Assembly (NCBI GenBank): GCA_963971285.1 | Contig: OZ020256.1 | Span: 3,908,501 to 3,972,500 of the forward strand | From: Astropecten irregularis | Lineage: Eukaryota; Echinodermata; Asteroidea; Paxillosida; Astropectinidae | Direction: 5' to 3' | Length of the DNA stretch: 64,000 bases | Part shown: positions 17,722-57,030 of the stretch, piece after piece | Layout: each line of letters begins with the position of its first letter | Position numbering within the stretch: position 1 is the first letter of the stretch | Made by a program: the position numbers and the translations under genes | The notes under the pieces: generated by a model | The model's input: only the letters and a program-made list of their open reading frames with translations | The model's database searches: none | Told to the model about the DNA's origin: nothing

Positions 17722-20700
17722 CAGTACCAGCAGTATTTGCTATTGTTTACATGTACTAGTCTTGGTCTGGTCATGACTACGATTTGGCATACCAGTTCTG
17801 AATGTAAATGTTATGCCGCTGCATACTGCAGAATTCCCAGCATACAAACATCATTCATCACTCATAATGTTAAAGCTACTGTATGTACATGTACAATGTA
17901 CATGTAACTTTGCAGAGTAAGTGGAAAATCCTTAGTTACATGTATGTCAAGTGCGCACCATAGATATTGGAAGAATAAAACACTAGATGGGAAACTCGTA
18001 TCAGACTTGCAAGTAGGGGCGCCACCATTAATCATGTGAATTAGGCTAAACATTTTAATATTGTGTGTAAAGTTCCATTGGCTTGTTAAGTCCGTTTATA
18101 TATAGGATTTTACGTTGAGCAACATCATACAGATAAAAACATTAGTCTTTTTGCTCTGTGCTTTGCCTCATCCATGTGGCTTTTTAGCGCGCCCATGTGC
18201 AGCAAGGAAGTTTTTCTGCACAAGCAATGGCTTAGTGCGCACACGTTTGAGTGTTTTATTTTTCCTACATGTATATCTACATATGGTGTGCACATGTGCA
18301 ATACACAAACTGAAAATTCCTTGCTTATCTGTTATTAGATAGGGCCTGCTAACTGCTAAGCATGGAAATGTAGACACTTCTACAGTCTGTACTGTGCAAG
18401 TACATGTATCAATTGGCATGGTCATGGCCTTGAACATGCTAATTGGAGATTAGATGAATTGTCATCATTAATACATGTACATGAAGGAGAGGATTATGGA
18501 TTACCGGTAATTAATGGTCGTGGTTAATTGGTGTCTATTTCAAAGTCTGCCATGCATGGTGCACTTGAGCTGTACAAACCTCAATCCTATGCCTACTACT
18601 TGTTGGTCTGGGGGGAAAACACCTGATAGGAACCGATAAGATATCTTGTTTAGATTTGGCTGCGAGGGCCCCTTCCAAAATAACAACGTCCTCCAAAGCG
18701 AAAGCTTCCCTGGTTTCATTTTTGGAAATCAAACAGATTTGACTTTTAGTCAATTGCAAAATAGATCGTCAAACCATAACCAAAGGAATGATATGCCTAC
18801 AGGTACCGTACACAATTTTGAAAGCGCTGTACATGTACACTAGATTGTTTGTAGTGCACTGTACTTGATTTTTATATGTAAAGGACGGTAAATATTTCGC
18901 TGCGTAATGCCCCTTTTTAGTAAAGGCCTATACCAAAGAATGAGCAAATTTTAGTACCCTGCACGGTTCTGCTGCAGTGGATTGCCATTGTGTGCAGTGA
19001 ATGAGCTGCGCCTCGTGGTGAATACTTGATGACACGTTCATGCATTACTTATGTGCATACATGTACGTGCCTGTCATAAAGCCTTCAGGTAAGCCAGCGT
19101 GGATTGTTTCTTGGTCACGAAATCTTGCAGTCATGTATGCTGGTCGTGCTAGTATCGTCTGGTAACATGGACATGCACGCAAGTACTGATGCTACATACT
19201 GGAGGCCCGTACATTGATGCTTCAGATCTATACAATTCCTTGTCAGAGGTTTGAATCTGTCTAGGGGTAGATTTAAGGGTAGATTTGGCGAGGCTGGTTG
19301 ATACGTACATTGTGTATTACTTTCAACGTAGGGAAAATAAACCAAAATACTTGTATTTTTTGTAGTTTTTAATTAAATTCTTATAATGACACCAGCTGAT
19401 GAACAGAGGCAGACCAGCTGATCTGCTCATCACACTGTACACTGTAGATGCATCAAATTGAGAGATGTGGGTTACCAACCGATATTCATAGTGCAATGCA
19501 TGTTCTTGCCACTGGTACTTCTAGTATTTCCTCTTCATTCAAACATTCATTCATTGCGGCCAAACATGTAGGCCTACTCTCTCTCCTGAGGATGTCCAGA
19601 GCACACTGGCTGCAACGTAGAGATATTGTCTCTCACCGGTCCTTCTCAGGACCACACATCTTCTGAAAAAGAGTGTATACCGGTAATACAGTACATGGTG
19701 TAGGCCTATCCGCAAACCTTACTTGCATGTACTTCCAACATGTACTTGATTAACATTACATAAAATGTTGTATACATGTACACGATGTACGTGTGCTCCC
19801 TTATGCACATACAGTGGTGTGGTTGACAGTGACATGCGATACATACATCGAGGTCAGTGTATTAAGCTGAACTAATAGCACTTTGACCTTGCAGTTGCAC
19901 AGGCATGTGCATTCAGTACACATATTGCATTCGCAGTGCATAGACCAGTACCGAGGACAGTGTGGCAGCTATCCCAAACCCATACACTAAACCTGTGATT
20001 TATGCAATTAGAAATGACAGTTTATGACTTTGCAAATACCATAAAGCTATATTAATATGCAGTCAAGGACTCAGGTGACAGACTTGTTCCCTACCCCCCC
20101 CCCCCCATCCCAAGGCCAAGTCTATTTGGCCATAAAAGGACAAGAAAGACCTTTTGTATAATGTGCGTGTGTAGGCCTAATTTCATTTATGTGTAACTAA
20201 GTGAATTGATATTAAAACTTGAACCTTCATTCCTTTGCAGGATTTTTAACTGACCCTGAATCTGGCTGAATCTGGCAGAGTCCCAACAGCACTCAGCAGT
20301 GCAGTACTGTACACACTGGGCATATTTACACCTGTGCTTTTCCATTTTGGGCCTGGACCAAGCTTGGGTCAAATCCAAGATGCCTGGGCCCTCAACTGTC
20401 CTTAACCCTTTAATATTCCACAAACAGTTTGGGACCACGAAGGGTGTATTCCTCCCCCCTCTCTATCTTTCTCTCCCCAAACGTGTCCCGGTTGTGTGTC
20501 AGAGCATAGACCTGAGTAGACCTAGCTCTATGGTCAGATGGACTCGGATTTGAATTTTCTTCAGCTCTGCAAATTCTGTTTGTAAATCGTGTGGCTTGTT
20601 ACATACAGTAGTAATTCAGCAGATTGCAGCAGTACGGGGTATGTGTACTGTGTACAAACACATTGTTCTTTGTCAGTCATGAAGAAAGAACTTCTCTCTA

Positions 20701-22096: not shown

Positions 22097-22305
22097 GAAA
22101 TAACCACAAGGGAAACTGACTGAGTTTTAAGTCATTGAAAAGTGAACAAAGAAAAATTGACTGGAGCGGGATTCGAACCGGCGACCTCCTGAATACCGTA
22201 CAGGCGCTCTACCAACTGAGCTATCCAGCCCTACGTTGGTGGTGACCCCAATAGTCAACTATCTTTGTTCGTTTGGCAGTCAGAAGCCATGAAACCACGC
22301 ACACA
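22097..22305 (-). mobile_element. tRNA-derived SINE, left half of a head-to-head pair
   Basis: Reverse-oriented full-length copy: tail ATAACCACAAGGGAAACTGA, then the B box complement (GGATTCGAACC), the A box complement (CCAACTGAGCTA), then the leader ending GTTTGGCAGTCAGAAGCC and CCACGCACACACCGCC. It sits about 20 bp from a forward copy at 22324. Confidence 0.85.
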
Positions 22306-22323: not shown

Positions 22324-22437
22324 GAACAAAGATAGTTGACTATTGGGGTCACCACCAACGTAGGGCTGGATAGCTCAGTTGGTAGAGCGCCTGTACGGTA
22401 TTCAGGAGGTCGCCGGTTCGAATCCCGCTCCAGTCTA
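22324..22437 (+). mobile_element. tRNA-derived SINE, right half of a head-to-head pair
   Basis: Forward copy with leader GAACAAAGATAGTTGACTAT, tRNA-like head GGCTGGATAGCTCAGTTGG and B box GGTTCGAATCCC, ending about TCCAGTC without the long tail. It is nearly identical in its tRNA part to the inverted copy at 22097-22305, so the pair can form a hairpin of about 110 bp. Confidence 0.85.
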
Positions 22438-23837
22438 CTTTTTATTTTGTTAAATTGTTTTTAGTGCACAACAAACATTTTGTGTCTATGTTATCTCCGC
22501 ACACATACAGGCAGAAATTTGACCCCCCCCAAAAAAAAAAAAAAAAAAAACTACCACAACAAATGTGTTTTTGCTTCTGCCCCACTGGATCACCCCTATC
22601 CCGCAACCACCACCCCCAATGTGTGCCTTTTCAGTTTTGTACGTATTCCTTTTGACTGACTGAAGTGACGTGACATGACATCCTTGCTTTCAGTGTTGAT
22701 GACTACCGTACTAGTCTGGACTCTGGATCGACTGTGTGTGTGTGTGCGTGCTGTGCACCTGCCTGATTTGCAAGCCTGAAAACAAAACCTAATGGCCTAG
22801 CCAACCTTGGGCAGTGAAGCTCACTTCTAATTGCACTCGGTGTACATTGTACATGATGAACGTGTATATGTCCATGTATTTTCCAATATAAGAACACCTT
22901 GTTTAAAAAAATAATAAATATTTTAAGGTATCCTATTTATTAATGTATCAATATGTATCATAAATTATTAAATTTTAATTCATCAATACATACATGTACA
23001 ATGTGCATGTACAGTATGTAGGAAATTAAAAATACACATTTTTTCAAATGTCTTTTTAATAACTGTAAATTAATAAGCAATTTTAGTATCAATAAATAAG
23101 ACTGCATTTAATTACATGTATCAGCAACAGTACAATGATTTTCATCATGCATGAAACATAAAATGGCATAAAATAGTTAAATACTTAAAGGCCTAGCAAT
23201 TAAGATTGATTTAATGATTTATGATTGATCTTAGTGCTTGGTGAAACCGACTGCTGGAATAATTGCCATGTGAATTAGATGTATGTACATGTACACGCAT
23301 TTACAGGAAAACAAAAATGACCAGTGTCAATGTAAAACAAATGAGTGTCACAGACGTACTTTGACAGTGAAGTGATCTGACAGATGGTTGACACATTAAC
23401 GTGCACTGTGCTTCAGGATGAGTAAATTAACGTCATCCTTGTTTGAACCTGTTCCAACCCAACACCATGAACACAGAACGTGCCAGTCTGATTTGTCCTC
23501 GTACAACTGTATACAGTATCTACCATTGCCATTGAGTTTGCAGCCCATTGTCACTGCACTGTCATACCATGTCCTTTTGATTTCTTTGTATGGTGTATTT
23601 AAGCCAGGCAGCTGAGGTTTAGTTATAAATCCGGCGTGCGCAGAAATTGCCAGCAGAAAATACCGCACCGGCAGTTTGTTATCCTGTGCTAAATGTCTGC
23701 CCTGTGGTTTCCGCTATATGGTATCTGTATGCCAGGTCACGTACATGCAGCTTTATTGTTTCTCTTGTCGGATATTCCATGTCCTGAATGTGTTAGTGGT
23801 TTCTGATTGTCCTACTAGGAGTTAACCCGTACCTTAA

Positions 23838-29462: not shown

Positions 29463-29614
29463 ATCAAATAACCACAAGGGAAACTGACTGAATTTAACGT
29501 CATTGAAAAGTGAACAAACAGAAATTGACTTGAGCGGGATTCGAACCGGCGACCTCCTGAATACCGTACATATATGCGCTCTACCAACTGAGCTATCTAG
29601 CCCTCTTTGTTTGG
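29463..29614 (-). mobile_element. tRNA-derived SINE inside a pentamer repeat
   Basis: Reverse-oriented copy with tail TCATCAAATAACCACAAGGG, B box complement GGATTCGAACC and A box complement CCAACTGAGCTA. The leader is cut short (ends near CTCTTTGTTTGG). TTCAG-type repeat lies on both sides. Confidence 0.85.
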
Positions 29615-35009: not shown

Positions 35010-35255
35010 CCAGGGCCCAATTTCATAGAGCTGCTTAAGCTCAAAATTTGCTTTAAGCATGAAAAGTCTTCCTTGATCAAACAGGATTACCAACCAAATG
35101 TTCATATGTTTACTGGTTACTGTTTTTTCGGCCATTGTTTGCTGAGCATAACATTCAAAAGTAGTTTTGGCTGGCTTACTGATTTAATTTAGCAACGTTT
35201 TTGGTGCTTAAGCAAAATGTTGGTGCTTAGGCAGCTCTGTGTAATTGACCACAGG
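35010..35255 (+). repeat. MITE, CAATTTCATAGAGCTGC family, upstream of the AFF start exon
   Basis: Left end CCAGGGCCCAATTTCATAGA, right end GCAGCTCTGTGTAATTGACC, then ACAGG. Interior words AAGTCTTCCTTGATCAAAC, TTTGGCTGGCTTACTGATTT, TTGGTGCTTAAGCA. It is inverted relative to the copy at 35702-35919 on the other side of the start-codon exon. Confidence 0.85.
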
Positions 35256-35521
35256 CTCCATCATGGACAATATTTGCTTAGGGTAAATTTTGTTTTCTGG
35301 GTCTGAATCTGTGTTTTGAATTCAGAACTAATTGGATTCAGAACATTGAAGCCAGGAAGTCTATTAAAAATGAGCGCATTGCGAATTGCTGGGAAAATTT
35401 ATGCAGTGTGGTGGCACTAGTCACTTCAACATACATGTAGCTTTTATGTATTGCCTGCACTAACCTCTTTGCTTTTTGCCTCCACCCCTATCCCCATCCC
35501 CTTGTGGTTTCTTACAGCACC

Positions 35522-35635
35522 ATGGCTGACAGGGAGAGCGCCAGGTCTCTTGCCCAGAGGAAGCGCCAGATGGAGAGCATCATCACCAGCCGGCAGAGCC
35601 CCTGTGAGGGACCTAAGTTCATGGAGCCGATAAAG
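35522..35635 (+). CDS. AFF: AFF family (AF4/FMR2; super elongation complex scaffold), first coding exon
   Basis: The exon runs 35518-35635: polypyrimidine tract and acceptor TTTCTTACAG, then CACC ATGG (an ideal start context), 38 codons, and the donor AAG|GTACGT, ending in phase 0. The peptide begins MADRESARSLAQRKRQMESI and ends GPKFMEPIK. AFF proteins start with a short basic/helical segment followed by an F.EP.K motif that leads into the stretch contacting P-TEFb (cyclin T1/CDK9); PKFMEPIK plus the next exon's TDKVDRKMQNILGSF reproduces this. AFF scaffolds recruit P-TEFb, ELL and AF9/ENL to release paused RNA polymerase II in the nucleus. The start is fixed by the acceptor and lack of upstream frame. 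Two inverted MITE copies bracket this exon. Gene symbol is to family level; the ortholog name in this species is unknown. Confidence 0.8.
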
Positions 35636-35701
35636 GTACGTTAGAGAGGCTCTTTTAATTCAGGGAGGTTGTGTGAACAGGTGTTGTTTCCGTGGAGAAC
35701 T

Positions 35702-35919
35702 CCTGGGGCCAATTTCATAGAGCTGCTTAAGCACCAACATTTGCTTAAGCTCCAAAAACTTAGATAAAATCAGTATGCTAGCCAAAACTCCTTGTGAATG
35801 TTATGCTCAGTAAGCAATGGCCGAATACAAGTCAAAAGCAGTAAACATCACATGGAAATTTGGTTGGCGATCAAGGAAGACTTTTCATGCTTAAGCAGCT
35901 CTATGAAATTGGCCCCAGG
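35702..35919 (-). repeat. MITE, CAATTTCATAGAGCTGC family, downstream of the AFF start exon
   Basis: CCTGGGGCCAATTTCATAGA on the left, TCTATGAAATTGGCCCCAGG on the right; the arms pair perfectly at the ends, and ACT lies outside both (possible 3-bp duplication). Its interior is the reverse complement of the copy at 35010-35255 (here GATCAAGGAAGACTTTTCAT). Confidence 0.85.
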
Positions 35920-36308: not shown

Positions 36309-37454
36309 TAGCCATAGTGACTCTCAAGACAAAGTGCAGCGTAGCTTAGGTTCCCCCATGGAGGGTAGGATGAGACCCTTGTGCAAACCTGAAATTGACG
36401 CTCTAGTGATTCTCCCAAAAGTCCTCTTTGGGTGACTCTCAAGTGAATCTGAACCTGACCCTTAAGGATGACTGGTCTGGGCATCTCCCAAGGCAATACT
36501 AAGGAAAACCTCAAGGGGACCTCTCACCCCCCTTTAAAGAGACACTTATTGAGATCCCTCAAGACTACTCCTAAGCATCCTTTAAAGCAATCCATATTAT
36601 GACCCTTGGACAAAAACAAACAAACAAAAAAGAAACAGTTTCAGCCTATGAACACATTTTTAATTTCCTTGGCTCTGAAGAACAATATTTGTGCTTCCAA
36701 GGTTGAACAATAGCTTATGGCAATATTTCTCTGATATTTCCCAGGAAAATTATTTTGAGGCATATGATAACAGATGTTACAGTGACATGATACAAGTCTT
36801 TTTTCTTCTTCTTCGTTTGTTTTTGTTGGGGGTGATATCCCTTGAAATCTAGGAATTTATTCAAACACTCATGTTTAACACTCAAAGCTCAAAGAGTTGG
36901 AGAAATTTTGCATTTACATGTACCAGAGAAGGTCCATTTCTTCAGAAATGATATAAAATAAACCTTAAACAGAGGTGTGTCTGATTAAGAAGTATCTTCT
37001 GTCTCAAAATCAGTCCCTCCAGTAAAAAAAGAAAACGGCACGAAAATCATTCATGTTCTGAAAAGACGGTCTTTGTTACGCTGACTCTCCTCCTCCCACC
37101 CTCAACCAGCACAGCTTTTGACCTTTTCATTTGCTTTGTTCGGTATCACCTGATTTGTCCTTCTGATATTTTGGGCTTCGTTGTCCCTGGGAGCATTATA
37201 TGGGACAACCTGTCTTGTCTGGGATTTAAAGAGCCGCAAAAAACTCCAAAGTGCAAATGTGAAAGGGCAACAATATCGTGTGTCCAACAGGACTCAGTAA
37301 ACAATCTTTGTTGTAGTTTTAGATAGAACTTCTTTTACTTACAATGTTTGGCATCATTTGTTTTATCGGGATAGACCTTTTTTTCATTTGATTCATGAAA
37401 TAGTTGAAAGTCTTAAACATTTTGAGTTGATTGTGTCTCTTCTTTTGTCAACAG

Positions 37455-37970
37455 ACTGACAAAGTGGACCGGAAGATGCAGAATATTCTGGGCAGCTTCA
37501 GCAAGATCAAGAACGTCGAGCCTAGCTCCATGAACAATCTGCTGGGGATTCCCAAGGAGCCGCAGACGCCAGTTGACAACAAAGCCCGTCCGAACTTTGA
37601 CACTCTGGGGGTCACATTTACACCCAACGGACAGGTGAAGGTGAGCAAGTCGGGAGGGAGCCAGTCTGCCGGCGGTGGCTCTGCTGCCGCGCCGAAGGAG
37701 CAGTCGGGCTCTGCACCCTCCAAGAGCAGCGTGCCCATTTCCAAGAACGGACAGAAGTCCAAGGAGACCCTTAAGCAAAGTGCGAAACAGGAGATGGCCA
37801 AGAGCAGACCCGGAGGATCCTCTGTGTCACCTCAAGTCCCTCCAAATCGAGGCATATCACCTTTACCGACGACTGCCAAGAGTCAAAAGGCAAAGAGCGT
37901 TGATGCCAAAAATCATGTCAAGAAAGAGAAAGAATCACACAGTGTCAAGCCATCTGATGGCAGTAGCAGC

Positions 37971-38002
<32 letters not shown>

Positions 38003-38441
38003 TCAGCCCAGCAAGTCCCGACCTAGTTCCGGCGAAAGCAACTCCAAATCACAATCCAAGAAGTCCTCAACTTCCGTGAAGTCCAAGGCGCCTTCCAAGT
38101 CCGATTCCAAGCCCACCGCCAGTGCGGTCAAGAAAGAGTTCAGACGGCCCAATGGCGTCATCAACAACCACCAGCTTATGCCCACCGGTGCAACCGATGC
38201 AACCGACTCCGATAGACACTCCTCCGAGACATCTGCTGAGGTCTCCAAGCAGGTGCGGCCTCGCACCAAGAAGGAACCTCCTGACCTCCAGGCTGGGGAT
38301 GGAGAAGAGGCCGGCTCCAGTTCTCTCTCCACAGTAACCAAGAACCTGTTTAAGGACCCACCAGACAGCACGACGGAGCGGAAGCCCGACATCAAGAAGG
38401 AGAAACTAGCTGTTCCCAAACTAAACATCCCTTCTGGCTTG
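37455..38441 (+). CDS. AFF: AFF family, large second coding exon (N-terminal homology region and Ser/Lys-rich linker)
   Basis: Acceptor TTGTCAACAG ends at 37454; 329 open codons; donor TTG|GTAAGA at 38442. Both ends are phase 0. It encodes residues 39-367 of the joined product. It opens with TDKVDRKMQNILGSF, the continuation of the AFF P-TEFb-contacting segment (AFF4 has an equivalent R.QSMLG.Y run), then IPKEPQTP. Most of the rest is low-complexity Ser/Lys/Pro sequence: a 14-Ser run (residues 208-221), several KKE/VKKE basic-acidic motifs and SP/TP sites, as in vertebrate AFF linkers. It ends with VPKLNIPSGL, matching the L..L.IPS stretch preceding the EIL motif in AFF4. Codon use is GC-richer than the flanking introns. 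Expected to be disordered; nuclear. Confidence 0.85.
37962..38003 (+). repeat. AGC/AGT trinucleotide repeat coding 14 serines
   Basis: Fourteen Ser codons in a row (AGT, five AGC, AGT, six AGC, AGT) in frame within the AFF exon. The AGT interruptions break the pure AGC array. Length variation here would change only the serine tract. Confidence 0.9.
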
Positions 38442-41178: not shown

Positions 41179-41365
41179 TTTTTTTTTTTTGAAACAGGTT
41201 TCTTTGACTCGGTTTGGGGGAATTTCACCTAGTGCAATCTTACCTGTAAACAATTACATTACGGATGTAGGTTTTTTTTTTTTTGAAACAGGTTTCTTTG
41301 ACTCGGTTTGGGGGAATTTTACCGAGTGCAATCTTACCTGTAAACAATTACATTACGGATGTAGG
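41179..41365 (+). repeat. Two tandem copies of a 94-bp unit
   Basis: A T run followed by GAAACAGGTTTCTTTGACTC...GTAAACAATTACATTACGGATGTAGG occurs twice with a period of 94 bp and only a few differences (CACCTAGTG versus TACCGAGTG). Recent tandem duplication in an AFF intron. Confidence 0.9.
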
Positions 41366-41439
41366 ATTTGAATGCAAAAAATGTATTCACGACCCATAGG
41401 CCCCATACCACACGAGGCAATTTACATACATGTACAGGC

Positions 41440-41545
41440 ATCAGATCAAGGAGTTTTGGCTGGCATACTGATTTTATTTACCAAGGTTTTTTTTGGTGCT
41501 TAAACAAATGTTGGTGCTTAAGCAGCTCTATGAAATTGGCCCCTG
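41440..41545 (+). repeat. Fragment of the CAATTTCATAGAGCTGC MITE
   Basis: Only the right half is present: GATCAAGGAGTTTTGGCTGG through GCAGCTCTATGAAATTGGCC. Same orientation as the copy at 35010. Confidence 0.75.
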
Positions 41546-42403
41546 GTTATTGGAGCCTCAACATTGCTGTTGTTGATGGAGCAAGACGTTACAATTTGTT
41601 TTTGTCCTTGATAAAGAGCATGAGTATGACAAATGAAATAGGCTGTACATCGAATTCCAGGGTTAAACTGTAATTTGTATCCAAAGGGTGCATTTATCAA
41701 GAATGATTAGGGACATTGGTCAAGGCAATAACTACACTATGCATGGAGGCAATTGCCTCAGTATAGGAAATGAATTGCCAAATAGAAATTGCTGTCATTC
41801 AAAAGTCATCCAAAACATGACCCTGCACTTTCCGGGGGAGAAGGGGGGGGGGGCTCAGTTAGCATGATAATTGAATTTTTTTCTGCCTGCTATATACACA
41901 TTTTTAACTTAACCTAATACTGTACAGTACATGTAATAATACCATTACAATTTGCAATATTATATTACTATGAACAATATACATTTAATTATAAATACAT
42001 TCAATAGAACGTTTGTTAAATGCTTGTTTTTATCTACCGGTAGTGGTAGTCAGTTTAGGCCAAATTCACCGAAAGTCTGAAGCTCGGTGAATCGGTGACA
42101 TCCTAAATCTGCACCGTATAGTATAACTTTCCCAATATGCTGACAGAGCATGCAACATACAGCTCATACAGCACATACAGAACATGTGCTGAATTTGTTG
42201 TCGTAATGTGTTTTTCTGCAATATTGCTCTCTCCAAATTTCTGTCAAGCGTGCAGCGAGGATGGATTTGATTGGATGGAGGCAGGCTGTGCACAATTGAC
42301 ATAGGAAATGAAGCCATCCGAATCCAGTCAAATTAATGTTTGGATTATCCTGGTAATAAGGAGAGCTGAAATTGGTTGAATGAAAATGTTGTGCTATTAC
42401 TGT

Positions 42404-44348: not shown

Positions 44349-44619
44349 ACTAAATTATTCATATAAAATTCATTTGGTAAGAAATTTGCCGCTCAAAGCG
44401 GCGAGAAAATAATGACATCTGAAATGTCCTCTGAGTTTGCTATCTATAGATTGTGTCCAATGCAGTATGTGTCAACAGATACTGATACTTTGTTATTATG
44501 CGTCAAGTGTCCCTCATCCAGGACTGGTTAATTAGTCTGGCCACAGATATAAACTTATCTCGTAAATGACACTGGAAACAGACACCTGAGGTTTCTGGAT
44601 GCTCTTTCAAATCTCTGGA

Positions 44620-44866
44620 CCTGGGGCCAATTTCATAGAGCTGCTTAGCACTAAAATTTGCTAAGCATGACATTTCTGTCTTAGTAAAAACAGGATTAAC
44701 AACCAAATTTCCGTGTGTTGTGTATCACTTGCAATTGTTTTTTGGCTGTTGTTCACTGACCATGAATATCAAATCGAATTTTCAATGGTGGTTTGTTTTA
44801 TTGGGCAAGCTATTTTTGTGCTAAGCAATTTATTGTGCTAAGCAGCTCTATGAAATTGGCCCCTGG
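44620..44866 (+). repeat. MITE, CAATTTCATAGAGCTGC family, 130 bp upstream of an AFF exon
   Basis: CCTGGGGCCAATTTCATAGA at left and GCTCTATGAAATTGGCCCCT at right, with GCTAAGC in place of the GCTTAAGC seen in the other copies. Lies in the AFF intron just before the 51-nt exon. Confidence 0.8.
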
Positions 44867-44993
44867 GTATAGATTTGCAATCGGCAAAGAGCCTATTATT
44901 TAATCAGAGATTGATTATTGATAAAATGCCGCCATGGTTGTTAATAGTTTGTCTCTTTTTGGTTTACATGTAATTCTTTCTTTTTTTATACAG

Positions 44994-51360: not shown

Positions 51361-51580
51361 CATCAAATAACCACAAGGGGAAACTGACTGAATTTTAAAG
51401 TCATTGAAAAGTGAACAAAGAAAAATTGACTGGACCGGGATTCTAACCGGCGACCTCCTGAATACCGTACAGGCGCTCTACCAACTGAGCCATCCGGCCC
51501 TACGTTGGTGATGACCCCAATAGTCAATTATCTTTGTTCGTTTGGCAGTCAGAAGCCATGAAACCACGCACACACTGCCA
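51361..51580 (-). mobile_element. tRNA-derived SINE, full-length copy
   Basis: The most complete single copy: tail CATCAAATAACCACAAGGGG, GAACAAAGAAAAATTGACTG, degenerate B box (GGGATTCTAACC), A box complement CCAACTGAGCCA, and leader GTTTGGCAGTCAGAAGCCAT then CCACGCACACACTGCC. About 220 bp. It defines the family consensus in the window. Confidence 0.85.
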
Positions 51581-54829: not shown

Positions 54830-57030
54830 ACTTTTGTATATCTGGACATAATAATTCTCACAATAATAATATTAACCCCTGACACCACAACCACAAACAG
54901 CGCCCTCTGTGAGAGAGTTTGTAATACACAAACACATGATGTGGACATTTGTATTGTTTGAAATTAATAATGGCAGCCCATTCAAGGATTCTGTTTTACA
55001 TGTGTTTGTGCTTTTCAAGCATTTTGTGATAAAAAAAATCAATCATAATGTAGTTTTTGCAGAAATCATTTTTCTTTTGCTTGGAGTTAGGATGCTCTGA
55101 TGCGTTTCAATCCTAGCAGGATCTTTATCGAAGGCTAGATCTTTTGTTTTTTTTACAAGATTTAAGATGAAGGTGATACTAAAACCAATTAAATATCAAA
55201 AGAAAATGATTGTCACATTAAATTTATGAATAAATCAGCTAATATAAGTACAATCATCAAATAGCCACAAGGGAAACTGACTGAATTTTTTAAGTACAGG
55301 TATACGATGTAATTAGTAGGTAGCATGATAGGTTTTTTCTTCAGTAAGTTCATTTGCATTTTGACCTCTTCAGTATCCTTACATAATTGTCAGTGGACAG
55401 GTTTGAATAAAAATGGATACAAATGTGTGCATTGGTTTTTCCGTAATTTCTTTTAACTCTCTAAACTCTAATATCATCGGTATACTGATTGAACCATGAA
55501 CATTTCATTGAGTAGAAAAGAAACGCATGCAAGATTGCATTGGGACTTGGCCACAGCGGAAAAAACGATCATCATGATGGATTATGCCGTCGGGGGATCT
55601 GGAGGAAAGGCTAATCATTCCCCCTGCCGCGCACGTTTCGAGGCTAGAGGGCGGTTGTGTTATTAATGGATGCCTTAGTCTCCTCTCCAGCCCTGGAAGG
55701 CATGTAGTTTCTGTATTCCGGATCTCTTTCCGCCCCAGTGACACCATCAGATGAAGTGAGGCCTTGTCTTTACCTGACAGCCTCCCCGAGGCTTTGAGGG
55801 GAGACTAACAGATGCCCCGTTGTGCATTATCAGCCTCGCAGGTATTTGGAGGAAAGATGACAAGGATTTTGCATCCGGCATCTTAATCTCTCGCAAGGTG
55901 TGTAAAACATGAAATCCTTAAGATGACCCCAAAGCTTGTACATTGCACGTAACCTCTCAAGGCAGTGAGATACACCTCAGGGTTGCGGACGCCGGGAGGT
56001 TTCTGGTGTAATACTCCTCGAGGGGTAGGGTTTGAGGTGCAGAACACCATGAGGGGGTGTGCATGGTAGGATCGGGAGGAATCGGATGCCTTCTGTCTTG
56101 CCTTGAGCTGTGTTACAGACCTCACATTGCAGACGGACATCCGTGGACAATCTAGCAAGATCATGTATAAACTTGCAAGAGGACTAAGGGGCAACAGGGC
56201 GTGGGATTGTTACGCACGACACCCGGGGACGTCGAAGAGATTTTGTAGTGCTGGTGATTTCTGAGAAGCATCTGAGGTGTACGATATACTCTGTAGCTGT
56301 TGAGCTCTAGGTGAATGGTTTTCTCTCACCACCAACTATCTCTAGAAAGTCTTGGGCTGTCTGAGATGGATCCCCGAGCTTGAAGTATGCCTCGGGGGAA
56401 AAAGGGACAAAGTCCAATGAGAACATTCAGACACATTGCTCAAATTGGTTTATCTTCGGATTGAATAGAAGCAATCCTTAGCTGGGTGTACAGTAATAGG
56501 CTCGCTGTACACTGTGCCAATGGCTCTTCTGGGTAGAAGTTGGTTTGGTAAGAAGCAGATGTATGACTTGTTGTTATGTACATTTAGTTTGTCCTGAAAT
56601 TGGCCAGTGCGTGTTAGTCTAAGTGTTGATGCTGTCCATCTTACTCCTTTCGAAGAAGAGTCACTAATAGGAGAGGAGAGTTACTCTCCTGAGGACGAAC
56701 AGAGCACACTGTTTGGAACGTCAAGATACTACCACCGGTTCTTCTCAGAACCACACACTCTCACATAAGAGATCACATGGTGCCACCGCAAACCTACCTT
56801 AGTCATTAACATGTTAATCCATAAACCTATTTACCACTATTACTACATTGATCATGCAGTACCTCACAGTTTCTGTGTCTGAATATCAATAAAAAGCCTC
56901 TTAAAAGGTAACATTCTAGGAATTTCTTTCTATTTAGATCATTGGTTCGGGCAGTCGATTTTTAAAGACTGGGGAACATGTTATCTGTCTGGTCTAACTA
57001 TATTTTCTGCCCTTCCAAGCATTAATGTCT
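54830..57030. other. AFF intron segment, mostly unique
   Basis: Contains only a SINE tail fragment at about 55255-55290 (TCATCAAATAGCCACAAGGG). The stretch 55500-56450 is GC-richer than typical for the window and free of recognised repeats, but I see no exon in it. Confidence 0.4.

What the first reader, a model, noticed from the sequence alone, without database searches (positions are those of the whole stretch)
35010..35919. Start-codon exon of the AFF gene is bracketed by inverted copies of one MITE
A ~246-bp element lies 262 bp upstream of the exon (35518-35635), and an element of the same family lies 66 bp downstream in reverse orientation. Complementary intronic repeats pairing across an exon are an established driver of back-splicing (circular RNA) and exon skipping. 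Here the looped exon would carry the translation start, so pairing could lower full-length AFF protein or yield a circRNA. The repeats and positions are seen directly; the consequence is inferred.
Basis: partly seen in the sequence, partly recalled or inferred. Interest (0 to 1): 0.7.

Follow-up and report, generated by a model that had tools for sequence, protein, structure and literature searches.

The report
Inverted repeats flanking AFF start exon
In what appears to be a sea-star genome, two inverted copies of a very common small transposon flank the exon that starts the AFF gene and could pair in the RNA to loop that exon out; the repeats look like two independent insertions, and any effect on splicing is untested.

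Summary
A MITE copy (A, 35010-35255, +) and an inverted copy (B, 35702-35919) flank a 118-nt exon (35518-35635) at 262 and 66 bp; they match at 189 of 212 aligned bases. The exon belongs to an AFF gene: the exon 2+3 peptide aligns with recalled human AFF4 better than all 5,000 shuffles, its only PDB hit, weak, is AFF4, and AFF C-terminal exons lie about 150 kb downstream. Predicted A:B pairing is strong: 191 pairs, ensemble 114-129 kcal/mol better than local folding. But A and B look like independent insertions of a huge family (9,470 termini): identity ordinary, 3 shared derived bases, and tens to hundreds of exons should be bracketed this way by chance (exon number assumed). Back-splicing or skipping is plausible but unproven; no RNA data were available. 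Two additions: the exon junction falls inside the P-TEFb-docking segment, so skipping would remove its Phe/Pro anchor as well as the start codon; and human AFF1 makes a dominant circRNA from exons 2-3 (PMC6382020). Verdict: real, mostly ordinary, cheaply testable.

The parts
35010..35255 (+). MITE copy A (246 bp), presumed intron 1; foldback element
   Evidence: differs from the family consensus at 23 of 215 compared sites
35256..35517 (+). 262-bp spacer with branch-point-like CTAAC (35460-35464), pyrimidine tract and acceptor AG (35516-35517)
35518..35635 (+). AFF start-codon exon (118 nt; ATG at 35522; 38 codons, ends in phase 0)
35636..35701 (+). 5' splice site GTACGT and 66-bp spacer
35702..35919 (-). 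MITE copy B (218 bp), inverted relative to A, in intron 2; foldback element
   Evidence: differs from the family consensus at 13 of 215 compared sites
37455..38441 (+). Next AFF exon (987 nt, phase 0 at both ends as called from splice signals), holding the equivalent of the AFF4 helices that bind cyclin T1; first in-frame ATG at 37476
41436..41547 (+). Partial copy of the same MITE family downstream of exon 3 (possible competing partner)
44617..44868 (+). Diverged full-length copy of the family downstream of exon 3 (possible competing partner)

Best explanation
Two members of a very abundant MITE family inserted independently, in opposite orientation, into the introns on either side of the AFF start exon (inferred from alignment and family comparison). 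If intron 1 is transcribed through A, the two copies can form a duplex of about 190 bp that encloses a 446-nt loop holding the exon (predicted). By the known reverse-complementary-match mechanism this would bring the exon's acceptor and donor together and produce some exon-2 circRNA and some exon-2-skipped mRNA, as a minor side path to normal splicing (inferred). A skipped mRNA would lose the start codon; the first in-frame ATG in exon 3 (37476) would give a protein lacking residues 1-45, including the Phe/Pro anchor of the P-TEFb-docking segment (inferred). I see no sign of selection for the arrangement.
For: Inverted pair and exon. AFF identity. Pairing: cofold -287.1; ensemble 114.4, 114.1 and 129.4 kcal/mol better than with pairs limited to 260 nt; 191 A-B pairs in the MFE and 192.3-192.9 expected pairs in 3 of 3 context lengths; 100 shuffles of B. 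Independent, ordinary copies: A-B identity 0.871, while 2 of 24 same-subfamily copies of the unbiased set are closer to A and 22 of 24 are closer to B; 3 shared derived bases, 2 of them where only about half of the copies carry the consensus base. A:B duplex -291 lies within -335 to -165 for A against 31 other copies. Precedent: PMC8330042, PMC12060249, passages; closeness of the paired sequence to the exon favoured the circle in the Drosophila scro constructs.
Against: No RNA evidence. Exon 1 and the promoter were not located, so A may lie upstream of the transcription start. Each copy self-folds (-77.8 and -93.7 kcal/mol), and A folds before B is transcribed. Splice-site accessibility is predicted the same with and without A:B pairing. 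Sea-cucumber exonic circRNAs rarely have complementary flanks (167 of 1,709), and 72 of 2,354 rice circRNAs have MITEs in both flanks. Human AUG circRNAs are linked to long introns rather than inverted Alu pairs.
Confidence: 0.5

Rival explanations
1. No effect on splicing. The copies are inert: each folds into its own hairpin, is bound or edited as double-stranded RNA, or A is not in the pre-mRNA at all; exon 2 is spliced constitutively.
For: Strong self-hairpins; family-wide abundance, with other inverted neighbours within 2 kb seen in the same 264 kb (2 besides this one), so such pairs are presumably often tolerated; no sign of selection; exon 1 not found.
Against: The A:B fold is predicted 114-129 kcal/mol more stable than local folding; ADAR editing can stabilise as well as destabilise such duplexes (PMC8938519 passages).
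Confidence: 0.38
2. A functional, selected switch: the MITE pair was co-opted to tune AFF/P-TEFb dosage by diverting the start/docking exon into a circle or a skipped mRNA.
For: Bracketing of at least one of 11 AFF blocks within 300 bp on each side has chance probability about 0.003 (the 300-bp limit was chosen knowing the distances); the exon carries both the start codon and part of the docking motif (PMC3589825 passages); human AFF1 makes a dominant circRNA of exons 2-3 (PMC6382020 passages).
Against: No clear excess of shared bases between A and B; tens to hundreds of such exons expected genome-wide; no comparative data.
Confidence: 0.07
3. The exon circularises, but independently of the MITEs, through long flanking introns (AUG-circRNA mode), most often as an exon 2-3 circle; the MITE pair is a bystander.
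For: Human circAFF1 of exons 2-3 is 90% of that gene's circular output in the blood-cell data; human AUG circRNAs have long flanking introns and lack inverted Alu pairs; no plus-strand AFF4 match better than E=0.16 lies between exon 3 and 172.9 kb (33 hits), so intron 3 appears long.
Against: A weak match at 94622-94690 (E=4.1) resembles the recalled AF4_int motif and, if an exon, would cut intron 3 to about 56 kb, though I see no clear acceptor beside it; other small exons may be missed. Equating human exon 2 with this exon rests on recalled human gene structure. No RNA data.
Confidence: 0.05

Closest known systems
Reverse-complementary-match (RCM / inverted Alu) driven circRNA and exon skipping; C. 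elegans zip-2 (PMC8330042, passages)
   Same: Complementary intronic sequences on both sides of the exon or exons; same predicted outcome, circle plus skip
   Different: Here only the sequence is known; the repeats are long foldback MITEs, not 7- and 13-nt matches; no circle or skip has been observed
Drosophila scro circScro(2) and laccase2 intronic complementary sequences (PMC12060249, passages)
   Same: Second-exon circle promoted by paired intronic sequences near the exon
   Different: Those were shown by transfection tests; here none
AUG circRNAs (PMC6487579, passages)
   Same: The exon contains the start codon, is probably exon 2, and the following introns include at least one apparently long one
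   Different: Human AUG circRNAs are overall devoid of flanking inverted Alu elements; here an inverted pair is present and close
Human circAFF1, exons 2-3 (PMC6382020, passages)
   Same: Same gene family; probably the homologous exon (recalled human structure)
   Different: Two-exon circle, blood cells; no MITE mechanism in the passages seen
Rice circRNAs with MITEs in both flanks (PMC4647462, passages)
   Same: MITEs rather than SINEs supply the flanking sequence
   Different: Plant; 72 of 2,354 circRNAs, and pairing across the exon was not tested in the passages seen

Membership tests
MITE (miniature inverted-repeat transposable element) | Short element with terminal inverted repeats | tested here: met
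   246 and 218 bp; B TIRs 38 nt at 97%, A TIRs 28 nt at 82%
MITE (miniature inverted-repeat transposable element) | High copy number | tested here: met
   4,731 + 4,739 terminus matches with up to 2 mismatches, 0 for the reversed control pattern; 21 loci, partial and weak ones included, in 264 kb
MITE (miniature inverted-repeat transposable element) | Target-site duplication | tested here: inconclusive
   Longer direct repeats: 13 of 56 copies with a 5-bp and 24 of 56 with a 3-bp repeat at a CWG edge, about what a random W gives; no clear TSD; superfamily not assigned
MITE (miniature inverted-repeat transposable element) | No coding capacity | tested here: met
   No ATG-started ORF of 95 aa or more overlaps 35010-35255 or 35702-35919 (20 ORFs listed for the window)
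RCM-driven circRNA locus | Complementary sequences in both flanking introns, near the splice sites | tested here: met
   Inverted pair at 262 and 66 bp; pairing dominates the predicted ensemble. That A is intronic is inferred from the acceptor, not shown
RCM-driven circRNA locus | Back-splice or skipping junction that depends on the repeats | not testable with these tools
   No RNA-seq or cells available
AUG circRNA | Circle that includes the annotated start codon | not testable with these tools
   The exon contains the ATG; no circle demonstrated
AFF (AF4/FMR2) gene family | N-terminal segment similar to the P-TEFb-binding part of AFF4 | tested here: met
   Exon 2+3 peptide against recalled AFF4 1-73: score 66, 0 of 5,000 shuffles reach it (max 50); exon 2 alone 38 of 5,000; exon 3 part 0 of 5,000. 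Weak by other tests: only PDB hit 4imy/4ogr at E=0.093; tblastn with AFF4 30-72 places exon 3 first at E=0.31; with filters on the full AFF4 query does not find exon 3 at E<=1; Pfam finds 0 families. Binding itself not tested
AFF (AF4/FMR2) gene family | C-terminal homology domain | tested here: met
   AFF4_CHD exons on the same strand at C20:4096577-4101171, best E=1.2e-10; 3 of them also by filtered tblastn, best E=5.4e-8. That they belong to the same transcript is inferred from strand, order and intervening AFF-like blocks

The most novel reading that the evidence does not exclude
Circularisation or skipping of the AFF start exon is an old habit of AFF genes, and in this animal a MITE pair has been captured on top of it. 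The resulting single-exon circle and skipped mRNA set AFF level and yield an N-terminally cut AFF that cannot dock P-TEFb and acts as a brake on the super elongation complex.
Probability: 0.06. Interest if true: 0.65.

Novelty: new member of a known kind. Interest (0 to 1): 0.3.

Why it matters
If the exon is looped out, a common transposon would be tuning a transcription-elongation scaffold at the exon that carries both the start codon and part of the P-TEFb anchor. More generally, the copy density predicts that tens to hundreds of exons in this genome are bracketed by inverted copies of one MITE family (exon number assumed), a ready natural experiment on whether foldback elements drive circRNAs in echinoderms, where paired flanks were reported to be uncommon in a sea cucumber (PMC6614181).

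Tried and rejected
Looked for selection or gene conversion keeping A and B complementary: no clear sign (A 23 and B 13 derived of 215 sites, 3 shared; insertions and deletions not counted). Tested whether A:B pairing is unusually strong for the family: no; for 40 random pairs of family copies the net gain of duplex over two hairpins had quartiles -144, -38 and -14 (range -206 to +7), against -115.9 for A-B, which is thus better than the median, since the random pairs mix subfamilies. Tested the idea that local hairpins would win at equilibrium: no. Searched for a target-site duplication to place the MITE in a superfamily: inconclusive. A regular-expression search for an AFF N-terminal motif found nothing. 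Pfam AF-4 (PF05110) found nothing on this contig (2 weak matches elsewhere, E 0.19 and 1.4), AF4_int (PF18875) 6 weak matches, none on this contig, and the PDB search with exon 2 alone found nothing. CpG ratio from 28 to 40 kb showed no obvious promoter. No related genome is held, so presence in relatives could not be checked. Paper searches: circRNA with sea-star terms listed 15 of 2,474 papers, 0 of the 15 holding the word circRNA; MITE with echinoderm terms listed 10 of 947, 0 of the 10 holding the full MITE phrase. The search on mRNA traps was seen as a listing and not used. This does not prove absence.

Limits of the AFF match: the unfiltered tblastn gives exon 3 E-values down to 4e-11, but these are inflated by serine-rich sequence; with filters on, exon 3 is not found at E<=1. 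The printout was cut; one search repeats that search and lists the missing part by number and best hits.

Limits of the chance estimate: the density comes from one 264-kb stretch (21 loci after hand merging of 43 overlapping hits), exon number (150,000-250,000) is assumed, copies were placed at random, exon edges were approximate (37443-38440 for exon 3), 11 AFF blocks were used although the gene may have more or fewer, and the distance limits were set after seeing the case. At 2 kb on each side the values are 0.105 for this gene and 1,760-2,934 exons genome-wide.

Limits of the family comparison: 75 sequences were compared (60 fetched, A, B, 13 from the 264 kb). Of the 60, 40 were chosen as best hits of A or B and 20 for an exact terminus on contig C1; the 'unbiased' set is those 20 plus the 13, 33 in all, one of which overlapped too little for a value. 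The profile used to orient copies contains A and B. In one search, 31 of the 33 were used (length 200 or more).

Full report
What is there. Window 35010-35255 (A) and 35702-35919 (B) are inverted relatives: 189 of 212 aligned bases identical, 40 gap positions. Each element is a foldback with terminal inverted repeats.

The exon. It reads acceptor AG, CACC, ATG, 38 codons in all, donor GTACGT. A CTAAC at 35460-35464 is followed by a pyrimidine-rich stretch with no AG until the acceptor (sequence), which argues for a real intron upstream. The exon ends in phase 0, and the next exon, which I place at 37455-38441 from the splice signals printed, continues in frame. The joined peptide's only PDB hit at E up to 10 is AFF4 in its P-TEFb complex (4imy, 4ogr; E=0.093), aligned through the exon junction. 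Against residues 1-73 of a recalled human AFF4 it scores 66, which 0 of 5,000 shuffles reach; the exon 3 part alone 0 of 5,000, exon 2 alone 38 of 5,000. Weak or negative tests: exon 2 alone had no PDB hit, Pfam found no family in exons 2+3, tblastn of AFF4 30-72 puts exon 3 first in the 264 kb but at E=0.31, and full-length AFF4 with filters on does not find exon 3 at E up to 1. The C-terminal part is clear: the Pfam AFF4_CHD model finds exons at C20:4096577-4101171, same strand, best E=1.2e-10, and filtered tblastn finds three stretches there (best E=5.4e-8). An AFF-like LVVKLNLSLINRVPG block lies at 174803-174940 (E=0.022). I take it as one AFF gene spanning at least 157 kb. In AFF4, residues 34-66 bind cyclin T1, with Phe35 and Pro38 buried and two helices following (PMC3589825, passages). 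By the alignments, the Phe and Pro equivalents lie in exon 2 and the helices in exon 3.

The organism. The window lies in a 475.7-Mb genome of 168 contigs. Its 16,335-base mitochondrial contig carries, by my reading of the translations, ND1 on the strand opposite to COX1, ND4L and COX2. From memory, that arrangement is the sea-star one; the species is not identified.

The family. The pattern CCAATTTCATAGAGCTGCTTAAGC, allowing 2 mismatches, occurs 4,731 + 4,739 times; the reversed control 0 times. I count 21 loci in 264 kb around the gene, partial and weak ones included, one per 12.6 kb, after merging overlapping hits by hand; five neighbouring pairs lie within 2 kb, three of them inverted, including this one. 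Against a consensus of 73 other copies, A differs at 23 and B at 13 of 215 sites; they share 3, of which 2 are at sites where about half of the copies carry the consensus base and 1 where 79% do. A-B identity is 0.871. In the unbiased set, 2 of 24 same-subfamily copies are closer to A than B is, and 22 of 24 are closer to B than A is: B is near the top of A's list, and A near the bottom of B's. The simplest reading is two independent insertions, with A the more diverged.

Pairing. RNAfold of the region puts 191 A-B base pairs in the minimum-energy structure in each of three context lengths. The ensemble is 114.4, 114.1 and 129.4 kcal/mol better than when only pairs within 260 nt are allowed. 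Alone, A folds at -77.8 and B at -93.7. The duplex (-284.4) is far outside 100 shuffles of B (mean -84.5, sd 6.0), but ordinary for the family: A against 31 other copies in inverted orientation gives -335 to -165. In direct orientation A:B would still reach -167.5 through the TIRs. The splice sites are about half unpaired with or without A:B pairing; the branch-point-like site is mostly paired in both (0.05 and 0.04 unpaired). These are equilibrium predictions; hairpins that form during transcription could delay or prevent the duplex.

Chance. With copies placed at random at the local density, the probability that at least one of 11 AFF coding blocks is bracketed by inverted copies within 300, 500, 1,000 or 2,000 bp on each side is 0.003, 0.0075, 0.028 and 0.105. 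Genome-wide, for an assumed 150,000-250,000 internal exons, 41-68, 108-180, 408-680 and 1,760-2,934 exons are expected. The pattern is mildly striking for one gene and expected for a genome.

Mechanism. Reverse-complementary intronic matches can promote both back-splicing and skipping (PMC8330042, passages), and closeness to the exon helps (PMC12060249, passages). I judge low-level circle and skip products about as likely as not. Skipping would remove the start codon; the first in-frame ATG in exon 3 is at 37476, giving a protein without residues 1-45. Evidence pointing the other way: human AUG circRNAs are overall devoid of flanking inverted Alu elements and are linked to long introns (PMC6487579, passages); in sea cucumber 167 of 1,709 exonic circRNAs have complementary flanks (PMC6614181, passages); in rice 72 of 2,354 circRNAs have MITEs in both flanks (PMC4647462, passages).

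An unexpected link. In normal human blood cells circAFF1 of exons 2-3 makes up 90% of the circular output of AFF1 and is among the most expressed circRNAs of that study (PMC6382020, passages). From memory, human exon 2 is the counterpart of the exon studied here; I did not test this. It suggests that AFF start exons may circularise with or without MITEs, which is both support for a circle here and a rival to the MITE as its cause.

Verdict. Observation confirmed; interpretation plausible, not shown, and not special in its sequence evidence. New member of a known kind; interest 0.3.

Noticed in passing
window 22158-22230 (-), 22363-22438 (+), 29526-29602 (-), 51427-51499 (-): tRNA-like sequences (Thr-GGT twice and Tyr-GTA by ARAGORN; 4 by Rfam), three of which (22158, 29526, 51427) overlap copies of one dispersed repeat (D1): perhaps a tRNA-derived repeat.
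   Followed up: partly
window 19633-19678 and 56732-56776 (+): Two histone 3' UTR stem-loop matches above Rfam's threshold, yet none of the 20 ATG ORFs of 95 aa or more in the window overlaps either; the second lies downstream of AFF exon 3, apparently inside the gene.
   Followed up: partly
G000:C131:32162-33484 (L011): A COX1-like reading frame without stops (552 aa open frame) that looks bacterial to me, on a 102.9-kb contig: probably a bacterial contig in the assembly.
   Followed up: partly
G000:C25:9951047-9952018 (L013): COX1-like stretch with 7 in-frame TGA on a nuclear-size contig: probably a nuclear copy of mitochondrial DNA.
   Followed up: no
window coordinates 38442 to 172876: 33 plus-strand AFF4 matches, none better than E=0.16, between exon 3 and the next AFF-like block; the one at 94622-94690 (E=4.1) resembles the recalled AF4_int motif but shows no clear acceptor. 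Intron 3 may be about 56 kb or far longer.
   Followed up: partly
window 41179-41366: Tandem duplication of a 94-bp unit, 97% identical.
   Followed up: no
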